Source of the DNA: Solirubrobacteraceae bacterium
Lineage (GTDB): Bacteria > Actinomycetota > Thermoleophilia > Solirubrobacterales > Solirubrobacteraceae
Direction of reading: 5' to 3'
DNA: 64,000 bases
Assembly: GCA_030447505.1 (NCBI GenBank)
Contig: JAUJOT010000001.1
Coordinates: 657,992-721,991 of the forward strand
Part shown: in pieces, positions 26,276-37,505 of the stretch
Layout of the letters: the number at the start of each line of letters is the position of its first letter
How positions within the stretch are numbered: position 1 is the stretch's first letter
Notes under the pieces: model-generated
The model's input: only the letters and a program-made list of their open reading frames with translations
What the model was told of the DNA's origin: nothing
Database searches by the model: none
Program-made: the position numbers and the translations under genes

Positions 26276-26758
26276 ATGGCACAGCAGCTCTGGTTTCTGC
26301 GACACGGCGAGGCCGAGCCGCACGATGCGCGCCCCGACTGCGATCGCCGCCTCACCGCGCGCGGCGAAGAGCAGTCGCGGGCGGCGGGCCGTGCGCTGGC
26401 GACGCTCGGGATCTCGTTTCAGCTCGTTCTCAGCAGCCCGCGGCTGCGGGCGCTGGACACGGCACGGATGGCGTGCGAGGCGCTCGACAGTGACGAGGTC
26501 GTCATCGACGCGTCGCTGTCGAGCGGCTTCGATGTCGACGATGCCGTCGGACTGGCGGCCGCCGCGGGAGACGACAGGCGCCTGCTGTTCGTCGGCCACA
26601 ACCCGGACTTCGTGCAGGTCGTCCACGACCTCACGGGCGGCGACGTCGACATGAAGAAGGGCGGCGTCGCCGCCGTGCGGATGCGCGGCCGCCGGCGCGG
26701 CGAGCTGCTCGTGCTGCTGCGCCCGCGCGAGATCAGCCTGATCGCGCCGTCAGGCTGA
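26276..26758 (+). CDS. sixA: SixA-type phosphohistidine phosphatase
   Basis: The 160-residue protein is a compact histidine phosphatase with the catalytic RHG motif (LWFLRHGEAEP), the second Arg in LVLSSPRLRALDTAR, and the second His in LLFVGHNPDFVQ. SixA enzymes remove phosphate from phosphohistidine on HPt domains or PTS proteins. The short length and absence of the sugar-phosphatase insertions support SixA over phosphoglycerate mutase. No HPt protein is nearby. Confidence 0.85.
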   Translation: MAQQLWFLRHGEAEPHDARPDCDRRLTARGEEQSRAAGRALATLGISFQLVLSSPRLRALDTARMACEALDSDEVVIDASLSSGFDVDDAVGLAAAAGDDRRLLFVGHNPDFVQVVHDLTGGDVDMKKGGVAAVRMRGRRRGELLVLLRPREISLIAPSG

Positions 26759-26761
26759 GCT

Positions 26762-28108
26762 TCAGAGCAGCTTTGCGGTCGCGCGCGCCGCGATCAGCAG
26801 CGGGTCGTAGACACCGCTGAACGGCGGCGCGTAGGAGAGGTCGAGCAGCGCGAGCTCCTGCACGGCGAGGCCCGCCCAGACGGCGGTGGCGAGCACGTCG
26901 ATCCGCTTCGCCGCGCCCTCGACCCCGACGATCTGCCCGCCGAGCAGTCGGCCGCTGCCGGGCTCGGCGACGAGCTTGACCCAGATCGGCCCGGCTCCCG
27001 GGTAGTAGCCGGCGCGCGTGCGATCCTCGATCGTCGCGCTGACGACGACGATCCCCGCCTGCGCCGCCTCGCGCTCGCCGATCCCCGTGCGCCCGATCTC
27101 ATAGCGGCAGATCTTCGACACCGCGGTGCCGATCACGCCCGGAAAGCGGTCGTCGCCGCCGGTCGCGTTGATGCCCGCGATGCGACCCTGCTTGTTGGCG
27201 TGCGTGCCGAGCTGGATGTTGACCTTCGCGTCGAGCACGCGGTGGTGGCTCTCGGCGCAGTCGCCGGCAGCGAAGACGCCGTCCGCGCCGGCGCAGCGCT
27301 GGCGGTCGTCGACGCGCAGCGCCCCGCTGTCGCCGACTTCGAGGCCCGCCTCGCGCGCGAGCGCGACCGCCGGCCTGGAGCCCGTGCCGATCACGACGTG
27401 GTCGGCCTCGAAGGACTCGCAGGCGGTGCGCACCGCGACCGGCGCGCCCGCCGCGTCGAGCACGACCTGCTCGACGGACGTGCCGAGCACGACCCGCACG
27501 CCGTGGCCCTCGGCGGCGTCCTGCACGTGCGCGGCCATGTCGGCGTCGAGCGTCGCCATGACCTGCGGCGCCTGCTCGATCATCGTCACGCGCAGGCCGC
27601 GGTCGACGAGCGCCTCGGCCATCTCCAGCCCGATGTAGCCGGCGCCGATGACGACGGCGCTGCTGCCGCCGCGCTCGAGCGCGGCGCGCAGCCGCTGCGC
27701 GGCGTCGACGGTCTGCGCCGGCTCGATCGCCTCGGCGCCCGCGACGGGCGGCGCCAGCGCCTCGGCCCCCGTCGCGACGACGAGCTGGTCGAAGGGCTCA
27801 TGCGTCTCTTCGCCGGCCGCGCAGCGCACGGTCAGCCGGCGGCCGTCGAGGTCGATCGCGACGACCTCACAGCACGTGCGCACGTCGATGCCGCGGGCGC
27901 GGTGCTCCTGCGGACTGCGGCTGATGAGGCGCTCGGCCTGCTCGACGAGCCCGCCGACGTAGTACGGGATCCCGCACGCCGAGTAGGACGTGTACGGGCC
28001 GCGCTCGAACGCGACGATCTCGAGGTCCGGATCGCGGCGGCGGGCGCTGCTCGCCGCGCTCATCCCGGCCGCGTCACCGCCGACGATCGCCAGTCGCTCG
28101 CGGGGCAT
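26762..28108 (-). CDS. CoA-disulfide reductase / NADH oxidase family flavoprotein
   Basis: The 448-residue protein has an N-terminal FAD site (LAIVGGDAAGMSAASSARR), the redox cysteine in SYSACGIPYYVGG, a second dinucleotide-binding site (AVVIGAGYIGLEMAEAL), the GVFAAGDCAES motif and a C-terminal dimerisation domain (YAPPFSGVYDPLLIAA). This matches CoA-disulfide reductases and water-forming NADH oxidases with a single active cysteine. It is divergent from mutM with only 24 bases between the two ATG codons; the start is 7 bases from a -10-like TACGCT. Confidence 0.88.
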   Translation of the reverse strand: MPRERLAIVGGDAAGMSAASSARRRDPDLEIVAFERGPYTSYSACGIPYYVGGLVEQAERLISRSPQEHRARGIDVRTCCEVVAIDLDGRRLTVRCAAGEETHEPFDQLVVATGAEALAPPVAGAEAIEPAQTVDAAQRLRAALERGGSSAVVIGAGYIGLEMAEALVDRGLRVTMIEQAPQVMATLDADMAAHVQDAAEGHGVRVVLGTSVEQVVLDAAGAPVAVRTACESFEADHVVIGTGSRPAVALAREAGLEVGDSGALRVDDRQRCAGADGVFAAGDCAESHHRVLDAKVNIQLGTHANKQGRIAGINATGGDDRFPGVIGTAVSKICRYEIGRTGIGEREAAQAGIVVVSATIEDRTRAGYYPGAGPIWVKLVAEPGSGRLLGGQIVGVEGAAKRIDVLATAVWAGLAVQELALLDLSYAPPFSGVYDPLLIAARATAKLL

Positions 28109-28138
28109 GCGCTGAAGCGTACGCTTGAACGCATGCCC
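28103..28138. promoter_or_regulatory. 36-bp palindromic bidirectional promoter containing both start codons
   Basis: The sequence is symmetrical about 28120/28121: GGGCATGCG arms at 28103-28111 and 28130-28138 flank a perfect 12-bp core AAGCGTACGCTT (28115-28126). Only two of 18 base pairs break the symmetry. The core carries two overlapping TACGCT hexamers on opposite strands, each exactly 7 bases from its ATG (28108 minus, 28133 plus). There is no room for a Shine-Dalgarno site, so leaderless divergent transcription is inferred. Confidence 0.65.
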
Positions 28139-28990
28139 GAGCTGCCGGAGGTCGAGATCACCGCGCGGCGCCTCGACGACGCCCTGTGCGGCGCGACGAT
28201 CGAGTCCGCGCTGGCGCCCGGGATCAACGCGCTGAAGACCTTCGATCCGCCGCTGTCGGCGCTCGAAGGCCGCACGATCAGCTCGGTCGGCAGGCGCGGC
28301 AAGCAGTTCGTGGTCGAGGTCAGCGGCGGGCTCGCGCTGCTCGTGCACCTGATGAGCGCGGGCCGCCTGCAGCTCTACGACAAGCGTGCCGGCCCGCGCG
28401 ACCGAACGTCACGGCTGCTGCTGCGGATCGCCGATCCGGCCGGCGCGCGCGAGCTTCGCCTGCGCGAGTTCGGCACCAAGCAGTCCGCCTGGGTCAAGCT
28501 GCTGCAGGCCGACGCGGTCGACGACGAGGAGCTGATCGCGTCGCTCGGGCCAGAGGCGTGGCCGCAGCCGCCGGAGGACCTCAAGACGCTGCTCAACGCG
28601 CCCCGCCCGCTGCACACGATGCTGCGCGACCAGCGCGTCATCGCCGGCATCGGGCGCTCGTGGGTCGACGAGATCCTCTGGAGCGCGCGGCTGTCGCCGT
28701 TCAAGCGCGGCGACGACCTGTCGGAGGAGGAGGCGAGCGCGCTGCGCGAGGCGATCGCGACGGTCCTCGACGGCGCGATCGAGCACTACGAGCGCGTCGT
28801 CGCGCTGCCGATCCCCGACAAGCTGCCGCTGCCGCTGCAGGTCCATCGCAGGGGCGGCGAGCCGTGCCCGCGCTGCGCCACGACGATCGAGCAGGTCCAC
28901 TACGAGGACTACGTGATGTGCTACTGCCCCGCCGAGCAGACGCAGGGCAAGGTGCTCAAGGACCGGCGGCTGTCGCGATTGCTGAAGTAG
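28133..28990 (+). CDS. mutM: Formamidopyrimidine-DNA glycosylase / Nei family (Fpg/MutM)
   Basis: The 285-residue protein begins with the catalytic MPELPEVE sequence in which Pro2 forms the Schiff base and Glu3 assists. It continues with the beta-sandwich domain (GRRGKQFVVE, HLMSAGRL), the helix-two-turn-helix region (LRDQRVIAGIGRSWVDEILW) and a C-terminal zinc finger (CPRC...CYC) ending in QTQGKVLKDRRLSRLL. It excises oxidised bases such as 8-oxoguanine or oxidised pyrimidines; Fpg versus Nei specificity cannot be decided. It shares a symmetrical promoter with a divergent flavoprotein of thiol or oxygen metabolism. Confidence 0.95.
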   Translation: MPELPEVEITARRLDDALCGATIESALAPGINALKTFDPPLSALEGRTISSVGRRGKQFVVEVSGGLALLVHLMSAGRLQLYDKRAGPRDRTSRLLLRIADPAGARELRLREFGTKQSAWVKLLQADAVDDEELIASLGPEAWPQPPEDLKTLLNAPRPLHTMLRDQRVIAGIGRSWVDEILWSARLSPFKRGDDLSEEEASALREAIATVLDGAIEHYERVVALPIPDKLPLPLQVHRRGGEPCPRCATTIEQVHYEDYVMCYCPAEQTQGKVLKDRRLSRLLK

Positions 28991-29020: not shown

Positions 29021-30829
29021 TCAGTCGCGAACCCCGTGCAGCGGGTTCGGGATCTGGACGTACGTGTCCTCCTCGTTCAGGCGCGTGCGCATCTGCGCCT
29101 TGCACGGCCACGTCGGCGCGGTCAGCAGCCGCTGAAGCAGCGTCGCCGCGTCGTCGCCGCGCTCGCGCTCGCGCTCGAGCAGCGCCTTGAGGTCGGCGAG
29201 CAGCTCGATCTCCTCGATCGCCCCGGCGACGCCGAGCGCGTTGATGACGGCGAGCGCGTTGTCGAGGAAGGGACCCTCGCCGATTCCGGCAGCGCCGACC
29301 GCGACGTCGTCGTGCGCGGCCTGGCCGACGAGGCAGCAGCGGGCGTCGCGCAGGACGCAGCGCACCGGCCAGCCGCCCTCGAGCTCGAGCAGCGTGTTCT
29401 GCTGATCGGTCTGGATCGACAGGCCGAGCTCGGCGTAGAGGCGAAGCAGCGGGACGATCGCGACCTCGGCGTAGCGGGCGAACCATGCGCGCGCGAGCTC
29501 GGCGACGGGGCGCCCGCTCTGCTCGGCGAGCCGCGCGACGATCTGCCCGAGGCGGCTCGCGCCGCCGAACGGGTGATCCTGGACGAGCACCTCGAGCGCG
29601 CTGACGTCCGCGTCGGAGCCGCTGCGCCAGCGGTTCTCTCGCAGCTGCACGGAGAGCCCGGCGACCGGCTCGCCGTCGACGTGCACGGCGAGATAGGCGG
29701 GGTCCTGCAGCATCGTCAGCTCAGGGGCGAGCGCCGCGGCGTCGCTCCCGAGCTCGTCTGCAAGCTCCCGTGCCACGTCGACCGCGCGCTGCAGCTCCTG
29801 CGGTTCGGCGAGCCGCATGTCGTCGGTCAGGCGGACGTGCAGCGGGAACGTGAGCTGCCAGGGCCAGTCGGCGTTGTAGACGGTCGACAGCGCCGCCGTC
29901 GGCGCGACCTCGCTGCCGAGCGCGCCGAGGTCCGCGATGCGGCCGTCCTCGAGCAGGCCCGCGACGAGCTTCTGCCCGCGCAGGTGCTCGAGCTCCCACG
30001 GATGGACGGGCAGCAGCACGCGCTCGCCGAGCTCGGCGAGCGCCGCGTCGAGTGCGGCGCCGTCGACGGCCGGATCGTCGCGCAGCAGCTGCTCGGTGAG
30101 CTGCGCCGCGGATGCGCCGCCGGCGCTGTCTGACTGCACGAGCGCGGGATCGACCGCGAGCCAGCGCAGCGCAAAGCGCGCCTGCGCCTCGGGTGCGTAG
30201 GCGGCGCTCTGCTCGGGATCGAGCTCCCAGCGGCTCTTGGCGGCCGGGTGCGCCATGTTGCCCAGCAGGCCCGCCTGCTCGCTGTCGACGAAGCTCAGCC
30301 GATCGGCGCTCCACAGCCGGTCGATGTCGTTGGCACGGGCATCGAGGAACGCGCCGAGGGTGGCGATGTGCTGGCGCACGCGCGAGAGCAGGAACGTCGG
30401 ATCGGGCCCGCGCGTTCCGGGTGCCGAGATGTCGTCGTCGAACAGCGTCGACCCGAGCTCGTCGGCGAGCATCCCCATCAGCGTGTCGACGGACACCGCC
30501 CAGGGCTTGCCGCCCGCCATCGCGACGTGCGCGGGGGTACGGAAGCGGTGGCGGTGCGTGGGGGAGAGGTGGCGCACGCCGGCGAGCACGGCGCTGCGCT
30601 CGTCGGGGAACGGCAGCACCGCGACGAACTCGTCGCCCTCCTGGGCGAACTCCGGCGCGCTCGCGGCGGGCACCGGACGCCACTCGCCGCCTTCGCGCGT
30701 GTAGCAGTTCAGAAGGGCCTCGACGGCGGCGCTGACGGCAGCCTGATGGCCGGGCGTCTGCGGCACTTCCTCGCGCGGGCTCGAGGGAAGCGGAGCGGTC
30801 TCTTCGTGGATCTTGATGTTCACGGTCAT
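29021..30829 (-). CDS. IucA/IucC family NRPS-independent siderophore synthetase
   Basis: The 602-residue protein has the order of motifs of NIS synthetases: GNMAHPAAKSR near residue 195, LLPVHPWELEHL, STVYNADWPWQLTFPLHVRLTDD, and the C-terminal FhuF-like half with SIQTDQQNTLLEL and PCKAQMRTRL. Such enzymes use ATP to join citrate or dicarboxylates to amines or alcohols in siderophores. No other siderophore biosynthesis, export or uptake gene is within the window, and no obvious Fur/IdeR box is seen in the 69-base gap to the divergent bcp gene. Confidence 0.92.
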   Translation of the reverse strand: MTVNIKIHEETAPLPSSPREEVPQTPGHQAAVSAAVEALLNCYTREGGEWRPVPAASAPEFAQEGDEFVAVLPFPDERSAVLAGVRHLSPTHRHRFRTPAHVAMAGGKPWAVSVDTLMGMLADELGSTLFDDDISAPGTRGPDPTFLLSRVRQHIATLGAFLDARANDIDRLWSADRLSFVDSEQAGLLGNMAHPAAKSRWELDPEQSAAYAPEAQARFALRWLAVDPALVQSDSAGGASAAQLTEQLLRDDPAVDGAALDAALAELGERVLLPVHPWELEHLRGQKLVAGLLEDGRIADLGALGSEVAPTAALSTVYNADWPWQLTFPLHVRLTDDMRLAEPQELQRAVDVARELADELGSDAAALAPELTMLQDPAYLAVHVDGEPVAGLSVQLRENRWRSGSDADVSALEVLVQDHPFGGASRLGQIVARLAEQSGRPVAELARAWFARYAEVAIVPLLRLYAELGLSIQTDQQNTLLELEGGWPVRCVLRDARCCLVGQAAHDDVAVGAAGIGEGPFLDNALAVINALGVAGAIEEIELLADLKALLERERERGDDAATLLQRLLTAPTWPCKAQMRTRLNEEDTYVQIPNPLHGVRD

Positions 30830-30898
30830 ACCTCGGATGCGATTGTGCCGGTGCGCCAGCGGTCACGTCCGATCCTACGCAAGTGCGATCATCTGCCG

Positions 30899-31360
30899 GT
30901 GATCGGCCCAGGCGCTCCAGCTCCGGACTTCGAACTGCCCGACCAGAACGGCGATCCGATCCGCCTGTCGGCGCTGCGCGGACGCCCCGTCGTCCTGTAC
31001 TTCTATCCCAGGGCCGACACGCCCGGATGCACGACCCAGGCGTGCTCGATCCGCGATCGCGAGGCCGATTACGCGGCCGCCGGCGTGAAGGTCGTCGGCG
31101 TCTCGCCGGACCCCGTCAGGAAGGTCAAGAGGTTCCACGACAAGCGCGGTCTGAACTTCACGCTGCTCGCCGACGCCGACCACGACGTCTGCGATCTGTA
31201 CGGCGTGTGGGTGCAGAAGTCGATGTACGGCAAGACCTACATGGGCGCCCAGCGCGCGACGTTCATCATCGACGCCGAGGGCTGCATCCGGCATGTGATC
31301 CCAAAGGCCTCGCCGAAGACGCACGACGCGGAAGTCCTTGCGGCTTTGGCAGCCGTCTAA
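30899..31360 (+). CDS. bcp: Thioredoxin-dependent peroxiredoxin (Bcp/PrxQ type)
   Basis: The 153-residue protein has APDFELPDQNGDPIRLS, then FYPRADTPGCTTQACSIRD with the peroxidatic Cys and a second Cys five residues later, as in PrxQ/Bcp enzymes. It reduces hydroperoxides at the expense of thioredoxin. Length is normal. The GTG start is divergent from the siderophore gene. It lies just before the accessory island and is the last gene of ordinary codon bias on this side. Confidence 0.93.
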   Translation: MIGPGAPAPDFELPDQNGDPIRLSALRGRPVVLYFYPRADTPGCTTQACSIRDREADYAAAGVKVVGVSPDPVRKVKRFHDKRGLNFTLLADADHDVCDLYGVWVQKSMYGKTYMGAQRATFIIDAEGCIRHVIPKASPKTHDAEVLAALAAV

Positions 31361-35763: not shown

Positions 35764-36668
35764 TCCAGCGCGCCCCAGCGCTCGCACGCGCGCGCGGCTT
35801 GCTCGGCGGCTTCGGGCAGCGCCGCAGCGAGCGCCGAGGGGTAGTAGTCGGTCTGGCCGAGCCGCGCGATCAGCAGCCCGAGGAAGACGTCGCCCGCGCC
35901 GACCGTGCTGCGCAGCAGCTTCGCCGGCTGCGCACGCACGTCGAGCCGCATCCCCTTCGCGCGCAGGATCGCGCCGCCGACGCCGCGCGTGACGATGACG
36001 TGCTGCGCGCCGGCCGCCAGCAGCGACGCGGCCGCCGCCTCGGGATCGCTCTCGCCGGTCATCAGCCGCGCCTCGGCCTGGTTGCACTTGACGAGAAACG
36101 CCCCCGGCACGCAGGCGCCCGCCGCCATTGCGGCGCGACCCGGGTTGCGGCGCCAGCGCTGCAGGCGCAGGTTCGGGTCGAAGACGATCGGGCGTCCGAG
36201 CTCGAGTGCGCGCTCGCGCGCCGCCATCGTCAGCTGCGCCTCGGCCTTGCGGACGAGCGTGTTGGAGGTGAAGAACAGCGCGTCGCACGTCGTGACCGCG
36301 TCGAGCAGGCGCCCGGCGAGCGCGTCGACGGTCGCCGCGATCGCGTCGCCGTAGAGCTGCCAGGTCGGCTCGCCGCGCTCGTCGACGGTGACGAAGGCGA
36401 CCGCCGTCGCGCAGCCGGCTGCGAGGCCGAACCAGCGCAGGTCGACGCCCGCGGCGGCGAGCCGGTCGCGCAGCCACGCGCCCCACGGATCGTCGCCCGC
36501 GCCGCCGCCGAGCGCGACGGCTGCGCCATGGCGAGCGGCGGTCGCGGCGACGTTCGCGCTGACGCCGCCGGGCGATGGCACGAAGGCGTCCGCGTCGGCG
36601 AGCGAGCTGACCGGACGGCGGCAGATGAGGTCCACGAGGGCCTCGCCGAAGCAGAGTGTCCGCACCAC
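35760..36668 (-). CDS. PfkB family carbohydrate kinase
   Basis: The 302-residue protein has the ribokinase/PfkB motifs: PGGVSANVAATAARHG near the N-terminus, an FDPNLRLQRW stretch, KCNQAEARLMTG, and the catalytic signature STVGAGDVFLG with the catalytic-base Asp. Fructokinase-like sugar kinases have this form; the substrate is not evident. It is probably co-transcribed with nth. The start is GTG, 6 bases from a TAGCCT hexamer shared with the divergent hydrolase promoter. Confidence 0.9.
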   Translation of the reverse strand: MVRTLCFGEALVDLICRRPVSSLADADAFVPSPGGVSANVAATAARHGAAVALGGGAGDDPWGAWLRDRLAAAGVDLRWFGLAAGCATAVAFVTVDERGEPTWQLYGDAIAATVDALAGRLLDAVTTCDALFFTSNTLVRKAEAQLTMAARERALELGRPIVFDPNLRLQRWRRNPGRAAMAAGACVPGAFLVKCNQAEARLMTGESDPEAAAASLLAAGAQHVIVTRGVGGAILRAKGMRLDVRAQPAKLLRSTVGAGDVFLGLLIARLGQTDYYPSALAAALPEAAEQAARACERWGALE

Positions 36669-36674
36669 TCCGTG

Positions 36675-36684
36675 AGGCTATCTT
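36675..36684. promoter_or_regulatory. Bidirectional -10 pair sharing one TA step
   Basis: AGGCTATCTT reads as TAGCCT on the minus strand (6 bases from the pfkB-family GTG) and TATCTT on the plus strand (8 bases from the hydrolase GTG at 36693). The two hexamers share the TA at 36679-36680. Confidence 0.5.
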
Positions 36685-36692
36685 CCGCGACG

Positions 36693-37505
36693 GTGCCCGC
36701 GCTGTCCCAGGAGACCGTCGAGATCGACGACCAGCCCGTCTTCCTGCGCCGCGCAGGCGACGAGCAGTCGCCGATCGTCTACCTGCACGGGATCCCGACG
36801 AGCTCGTTCGACTGGCTCTCGCCGCTCGCGCTGGGCGGCGGCATCGCGGTCGACCTGCCCGGCTACGGACGCAGCGGCAAGCGCGGCGACCTCGACTACT
36901 CGCTGGCGGGACACGTGCGCTTCCTCGACCGGCTGCTCGACGAGCTCGACCTCGACCGGGTGCGGCTGTGCATGCACGACTGGGGCGCCGCGATCGGACT
37001 CGCGTGGGCCGGCGAGCAGCCCGAACGCGTGCAGCGGCTCGTCGCGATCAACGCCGTCCCGCTGCTGGCGGGCTTTCGCTGGCGCGGTCCGGCGCGGCTC
37101 GTGCGGACTCCGTTCGTCGGGCCGATCGCCGTCGGCGCGGCGACGAAGCGCGTCCTGCGTCATGTCTCGCGACGCGCGTCGGCGGGCAGGGGGCCGATGC
37201 CCGAGCCGTTCGTCGCGAGCGTCGCCGACAACTTCGACCTGGGAACCGCGAGAGCGACGCTGCAGCTGCTGCGCAGCGCATCGCCCGAGCTGCTCGCGCA
37301 GGCCGGCGCGAAACTCGGCGCGATCACGGCGCCCGCGCTCGTCCTGTGGGGCCGCCACGACCCGTACATCCCGGCGCGGTTCGGCGCGGGGTACGCCGCG
37401 ACGCTCGGCGACGCGACGCTCGAGGTCGTCGAGAACGCCGGGCACTGGCCGTGGATCGACCAGCCCGAGCTCGCCGCGCGGATCGTCGAGCACCTCAGCG
37501 ACTGA
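36693..37505 (+). CDS. Alpha/beta hydrolase, haloalkane dehalogenase/epoxide hydrolase-like
   Basis: The 270-residue protein has the oxyanion-hole region YLHGIPTSSFDWLSP, a nucleophile elbow with Asp instead of Ser (LCMHDWGAAIGLAWA), an acid in WGRHDPYIPARF and the catalytic His in VVENAGHWPWIDQP. An Asp nucleophile followed by Trp is typical of haloalkane dehalogenases and related epoxide hydrolases. The actual substrate cannot be deduced. The previous gene is divergent with an overlapping promoter. Confidence 0.85.
   Translation: MPALSQETVEIDDQPVFLRRAGDEQSPIVYLHGIPTSSFDWLSPLALGGGIAVDLPGYGRSGKRGDLDYSLAGHVRFLDRLLDELDLDRVRLCMHDWGAAIGLAWAGEQPERVQRLVAINAVPLLAGFRWRGPARLVRTPFVGPIAVGAATKRVLRHVSRRASAGRGPMPEPFVASVADNFDLGTARATLQLLRSASPELLAQAGAKLGAITAPALVLWGRHDPYIPARFGAGYAATLGDATLEVVENAGHWPWIDQPELAARIVEHLSD

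What the first reader, a model, noticed from the sequence alone, without database searches (positions are those of the whole stretch)
28103..28138. 36-bp palindrome acting as a symmetrical divergent promoter with both ATGs inside it
The flavoprotein and mutM ATGs are 24 bases apart. The palindrome centre AAGCGTACGCTT contains TACGCT on both strands, each exactly 7 bases from its ATG, so one symmetrical element could drive leaderless transcription in both directions. Because even the start codons lie in the arms, a dimeric regulator bound here would control both transcription and start-codon access. Pairing a DNA-oxidation repair enzyme with a thiol/oxygen flavoprotein suggests redox control.
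Basis: partly seen in the sequence, partly recalled or inferred. Interest (0 to 1): 0.65.

Follow-up and report, generated by a model that had tools for sequence, protein, structure and literature searches.

The report
Two-way leaderless promoter between two genes
A 24-base gap between two back-to-back genes carries two overlapping start signals for RNA polymerase that share the same two central bases, so the DNA reads almost the same on both strands; the promoter signals are kept in relatives, but the mirror symmetry itself is not.

Summary
The palindrome is real: 28103-28138, 16 of 18 pairs, the only one that good in the window (0.03 expected). It holds TACGCT on both strands, sharing the central TA, each 7 nt from its ATG. 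The promoter reading is well supported by comparison. mutM keeps a TANNNT box 6-10 nt before its start in 23 of 29 relatives, and most flavoprotein orthologues with their own upstream region keep one too. Across 121 family genomes the layout CAT-N7-ANNNTANNNT-N7-ATG occurs 72 times against 5 for the reversed pattern; the opposite start codon piles up 5-10 nt from the shared box; the TANNNTA (18-bp) layout is not enriched. A second such promoter lies in the same window (36666-36695). The regulator reading is not supported: the core AAGCGTACGCTT occurs once in this genome and in none of 120 other family genomes, and in the nearest relative with both genes divergent the two -10 boxes are separate. 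There a 40-bp difference between two TACGC repeats would account for the palindrome. The symmetry is what two copies of one leaderless promoter template look like when they share a TA: a doubly leaderless form of the known bacterial bidirectional promoters. Transcription starts were not measured; redox co-control remains conjecture.

The parts
28103..28138 (.). 36-bp imperfect palindrome (16/18 pairs) spanning both start codons
28116..28125 (.). shared bidirectional -10 core AGCGTACGCT; the two hexamers overlap at TA 28120-28121
   Evidence: class enrichment
28120..28125 (+). -10 element TACGCT of mutM, 7 nt from ATG
   Evidence: TANNNT 6-10 nt upstream of mutM in 23 of 29 relatives
28116..28121 (-). 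-10 element TACGCT of the flavoprotein gene, 7 nt from ATG
   Evidence: TANNNT 6-10 nt upstream in most orthologues with their own upstream region
28133..28990 (+). mutM/fpg-family DNA glycosylase gene; predicted transcription start at or next to 28133
   Evidence: start site inferred
26762..28108 (-). CoA-disulfide-reductase/NADH-oxidase-type flavoprotein gene; predicted transcription start at or next to 28108
   Evidence: start site inferred
36666..36695 (.). second shared-TA divergent leaderless promoter in the window (GTG-N6-AGGCTATCTT-N8-GTG; PfkB-family kinase gene on -, alpha/beta hydrolase gene on +), not palindromic

Best explanation
This is a bidirectional core promoter of the housekeeping-sigma type. 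Two -10 elements (TACGCT) on opposite strands overlap by their first two bases, TA. RNA polymerase can bind in either orientation, one at a time, and start at or next to the A of the ATG, giving leaderless mutM mRNA one way and leaderless flavoprotein mRNA the other. The 36-bp palindrome follows from this layout: two copies of the template TANNNT-N7-ATG placed head to head on one TA, with the same -10 letters and Pro as second codon in both genes. It probably formed, or was lost in relatives, through a small indel between TACGC repeats. Shown: the sequence, the conservation of each -10, and the family-wide excess of the geometry. Inferred: transcription starts, the sigma factor, mutual exclusion, and the direction of the indel.
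For: TANNNT 6-10 nt before the mutM start in 23 of 29 relatives, none in the 35 more distal positions tested; the same for most flavoprotein orthologues, next to mutM or not. CAT-N7-ANNNTANNNT-N7-ATG at 72 places in 121 family genomes against 5 for the reversed pattern. With one side fixed, the opposite start codon piles up at N5-N10 (108 of 150 listed hits) against about 2 per position elsewhere. Shared TA about 48 places against 2.7 per gap for separate boxes with the same CCAT start. The glyoxalase/metallo-beta-lactamase-fold pair keeps the layout in five genomes of the genus and one of another genus. Second example in the window. Candidate starts in the window carry TANNNT at N5-N9 about six times more often per position than elsewhere.
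Against: No transcription start was measured. Not every relative's mutM has a recognisable -10 (6 of 29 do not). In G003 the same two genes use separate -10 boxes, so sharing is not required for their expression. The exact 7/7 ATG/ATG layout occurs only once in this genome.
Confidence: 0.85

Rival explanations
1. The palindrome is the operator of a dimeric (for example redox-sensing) regulator that blocks RNA polymerase and start-codon access for both genes.
For: Long, strong symmetry at the ideal place for a repressor; thiol/oxygen-linked neighbours, including a PrxQ/Bcp-type peroxiredoxin at 30875-31360. Bidirectional promoters in E. coli such as acrA/acrR and soxS/soxR are under regulators (PMC12825309).
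Against: Core absent from all other family genomes and single-copy here; palindrome lost in G003, G001, G032 although both genes remain; symmetry beyond the shared TA hardly exceeds random pairing of halves in the class. Imperfect variants of the site were not searched for.
Confidence: 0.08
2. Two independent leaderless promoters that happen to overlap after a deletion; the overlap has no effect on expression and the palindrome is a by-product.
For: In G003 the boxes are separate and a 40-bp difference between TACGC repeats would produce the fused form. E. coli bidirectional promoters at basal strength show little interference (PMC12825309).
Against: The shared-TA spacing is strongly over-represented across the family and conserved at orthologous pairs, which suggests it is at least favoured. 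This rival differs from the best explanation only in whether the sharing matters.
Confidence: 0.4
3. The inverted repeat acts as RNA: a hairpin, attenuator or terminator.
For: A long inverted repeat could fold if transcribed through.
Against: With starts at the ATGs neither mRNA contains both arms; the element lies between two gene starts, not ends, and no T run follows.
Confidence: 0.02

Closest known systems
Bacterial bidirectional promoters (Warman et al. 2021, doi 10.1038/s41564-021-00898-9, known here through PMC12825309 and PMC10268837)
   Same: Symmetrical or overlapping -10 elements let RNA polymerase bind in two orientations; divergent starts 7-25 bp apart, with 18 bp commonest and 10 and 23 bp also common. 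Predicted starts here are 25 bp apart (28108 and 28133), the shared-TA geometry that corresponds to the 23-bp class with one base more on each side.
   Different: Both products are predicted leaderless mRNAs of coding genes, so the whole control region is the 24 bp between two start codons; in this family the shared-TA layout, not the 18-bp TANNNTA layout, is the enriched one for such pairs.
Leaderless genes with a TANNNT box about 12 bp upstream of the start codon (PMC3160421; mycobacterial examples PMC10937400)
   Same: Same box, same distance, high-GC actinobacterial host (Solirubrobacteraceae by nearest named contigs).
   Different: Two of them are fused on one TA, head to head.

Membership tests
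Bidirectional promoter (Warman/Grainger) | Overlapping or shared -10 element on opposite strands | tested here: met
   TACGCT on both strands sharing TA 28120-28121
Bidirectional promoter (Warman/Grainger) | Divergent transcription starts 7-25 bp apart | not testable with these tools
   Predicted distance is 25 bp if both start at the A of ATG; no RNA data
Leaderless gene (TANNNT class) | TANNNT about 12 bp upstream of the start codon, conserved in orthologues | tested here: met
   mutM 23 of 29; flavoprotein in most orthologues with own upstream region
Leaderless gene (TANNNT class) | mRNA 5' end at the start codon | not testable with these tools
   no 5'-end data
Operator of a dimeric regulator | Palindrome conserved at orthologous loci or repeated at other targets | tested here: not met
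   only the exact core was searched, imperfect variants were not
Operator of a dimeric regulator | Specific protein binding | not testable with these tools
   needs EMSA or pull-down

The most novel reading that the evidence does not exclude
Solirubrobacteraceae use a recurrent regulatory module of about 24 bp, two start codons around one shared TA, in which mutually exclusive polymerase binding sets the ratio or noise of two leaderless mRNAs from divergent, sometimes functionally linked gene pairs (glyoxalase/metallo-beta-lactamase-fold; mutM/flavoprotein).
Probability: 0.3. Interest if true: 0.6.

Novelty: new variant of a known kind. Interest (0 to 1): 0.42.

Why it matters
It gives a sequence-level rule for a promoter class that can be read from genomes without RNA data: when both genes are leaderless, the start codons mark the transcription starts. 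It also indicates that in this high-GC family the preferred two-way geometry for leaderless gene pairs is the shared-TA layout rather than the 18-bp layout commonest in E. coli. And it warns that a strong palindrome between divergent starts need not be an operator.

Tried and rejected
Operator hypothesis: no second copy of the exact core and no conservation. RNA hairpin or terminator: both arms are not in one predicted transcript. TANNNTA (18-bp) geometry: 4 places against 7 control, and a nearly flat spacing spectrum. The reversed-pattern control alone was judged too weak, because the shared layout costs only one extra base plus a CAT once a real leaderless promoter exists; it was complemented by the spacing spectrum (the listing was cut at 150 hits). 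The phylum-wide scan was less informative because AT-rich genomes inflate chance hits (my count 93 against 49). The original Warman 2021 paper is not held. No tree was built, so whether the fused state is ancestral is left open.

Full report
Observation. The 36-bp palindrome at 28103-28138 is as described, with two mismatched pairs out of 18. It is the only one of that quality in the window; a first-order Markov model gives 0.03 per 64 kb, which is about two per genome of 3.84 Mb. The flanking genes are a MutM/Fpg-family glycosylase (+, ATG 28133) and a flavoprotein of the CoA-disulfide reductase/NADH oxidase family (-, ATG 28108), 24 bp apart.

What the letters are. Going outward from the centre on each strand, the palindrome reads TACGCT, seven bases, ATG CCC. 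TANNNT about 12 bp before a start codon is the accepted sequence mark of leaderless genes in Actinobacteria (PMC3160421); the nearest named contigs place the window in Solirubrobacteraceae. The two boxes overlap by TA at 28120-28121. Nothing like TTGACA stands at the -35 distance on either side, where the other gene is already coding (28097-28102 CTCGCG for mutM).

Each promoter half is conserved. In 29 relatives with the mutM start, 23 have TANNNT 6-10 nt before it and none has one in the 35 more distal positions tested. The flavoprotein gene keeps TANNNT 6-10 nt before its start in most orthologues that have their own upstream region, whether or not mutM is its neighbour.

The palindrome is not conserved. 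In G003 (mutM 91% identical) the genes are divergent but the boxes lie apart: AAGCGTACGC ... TACGCTTG. The distance between the two TACGC copies is 40 bp, and its absence would give AAGCGTACGCTTG, the core seen here. In G001 another reading frame appears to lie between the two genes; in G006 the flavoprotein gene follows mutM in tandem; in G005 no orthologue passes the cut-off used. In G032, of another genus, the boxes again share a TA (ACCCTACCCT), with TTG and ATG starts 8 and 7 nt away, but without the palindrome; the TTG start is my reading of the frame. Whether the shared state is ancestral or arose twice cannot be told. The exact core AAGCGTACGCTT is found once in this genome and nowhere in 120 other family genomes. 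A regulator site would be expected to recur or persist.

The layout is a family-wide class. CAT-N7-ANNNTANNNT-N7-ATG occurs at 72 places in 121 family genomes, against 5 for the reversed pattern; the N6 version is also far above control. Because the shared layout needs few extra bases once a leaderless promoter exists, I ran a stricter test. With one side fixed, the distance of the opposite start codon was left free: in the 150 hits listed it piles up at N5-N10 (108 hits) and falls to about 2 per position elsewhere. Separate boxes at any single gap from 0 to 30 average 2.7 places, against about 48 for the shared TA with the same CCAT start. The TANNNTA arrangement, the commonest in E. coli, is not enriched. 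One pair, glyoxalase with a metallo-beta-lactamase-fold protein, keeps the layout in G001, G003, G004, G005 and G006 and in another genus (G143). Not every hit is a real pair: several of the 30 loci opened have only a very short frame on one side. A second case lies in this window at 36666-36695 between PfkB-kinase and hydrolase genes, again 24 bp between starts, not palindromic. Among 60 distinct cores, symmetry beyond the shared TA is only slightly above random pairing of halves (z 2.1 inside the boxes, 1.4 in the spacers), so strong palindromes are mainly the tail of this class.

Mechanism. The most likely reading is a bidirectional promoter. Polymerase binds in one of two orientations, opens the shared region, and starts at or beside each ATG. 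Work in E. coli describes such promoters, with one binding event excluding the other, little interference at basal strength, and repression of one direction when the other is strongly activated (PMC12825309). The present case differs in that both products are predicted leaderless mRNAs. Starts, sigma factor and mutual exclusion are inferred, not shown. Any special redox coupling of mutM and the flavoprotein is unproven; their proximity in five of the 61 genomes examined is only suggestive.

Verdict. The thing is a doubly leaderless variant of a known class, of moderate interest mainly because the class can be counted from sequence across a whole family.

Noticed in passing
36666-36695: A second shared-TA divergent leaderless promoter (GTG-N6-AGGCTATCTT-N8-GTG) between PfkB-kinase and alpha/beta-hydrolase genes, with the same 24-bp spacing between starts.
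   Followed up: partly
L117-L121, L130: A glyoxalase/metallo-beta-lactamase-fold gene pair keeps a shared-TA divergent leaderless promoter across a genus and in one genome of another genus.
   Followed up: partly
26276-26758: SixA-like phosphohistidine phosphatase gene ends 4 bp from the end of the flavoprotein gene; in G005 (L003) the frame just upstream of mutM looks like the end of a SixA-like gene and no flavoprotein orthologue passed the cut-off.
   Followed up: no
28133-28990: The MutM zinc-finger region reads CPRC...MCYCPAEQ, so the usual fourth cysteine seems to be replaced; the protein scores below the curated cut-off of the fpg family models.
   Followed up: no
29021-31360: IucA/IucC-type siderophore synthetase gene next to mutM, with a PrxQ/Bcp-type peroxiredoxin gene beyond it (30875-31360).
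   Followed up: no
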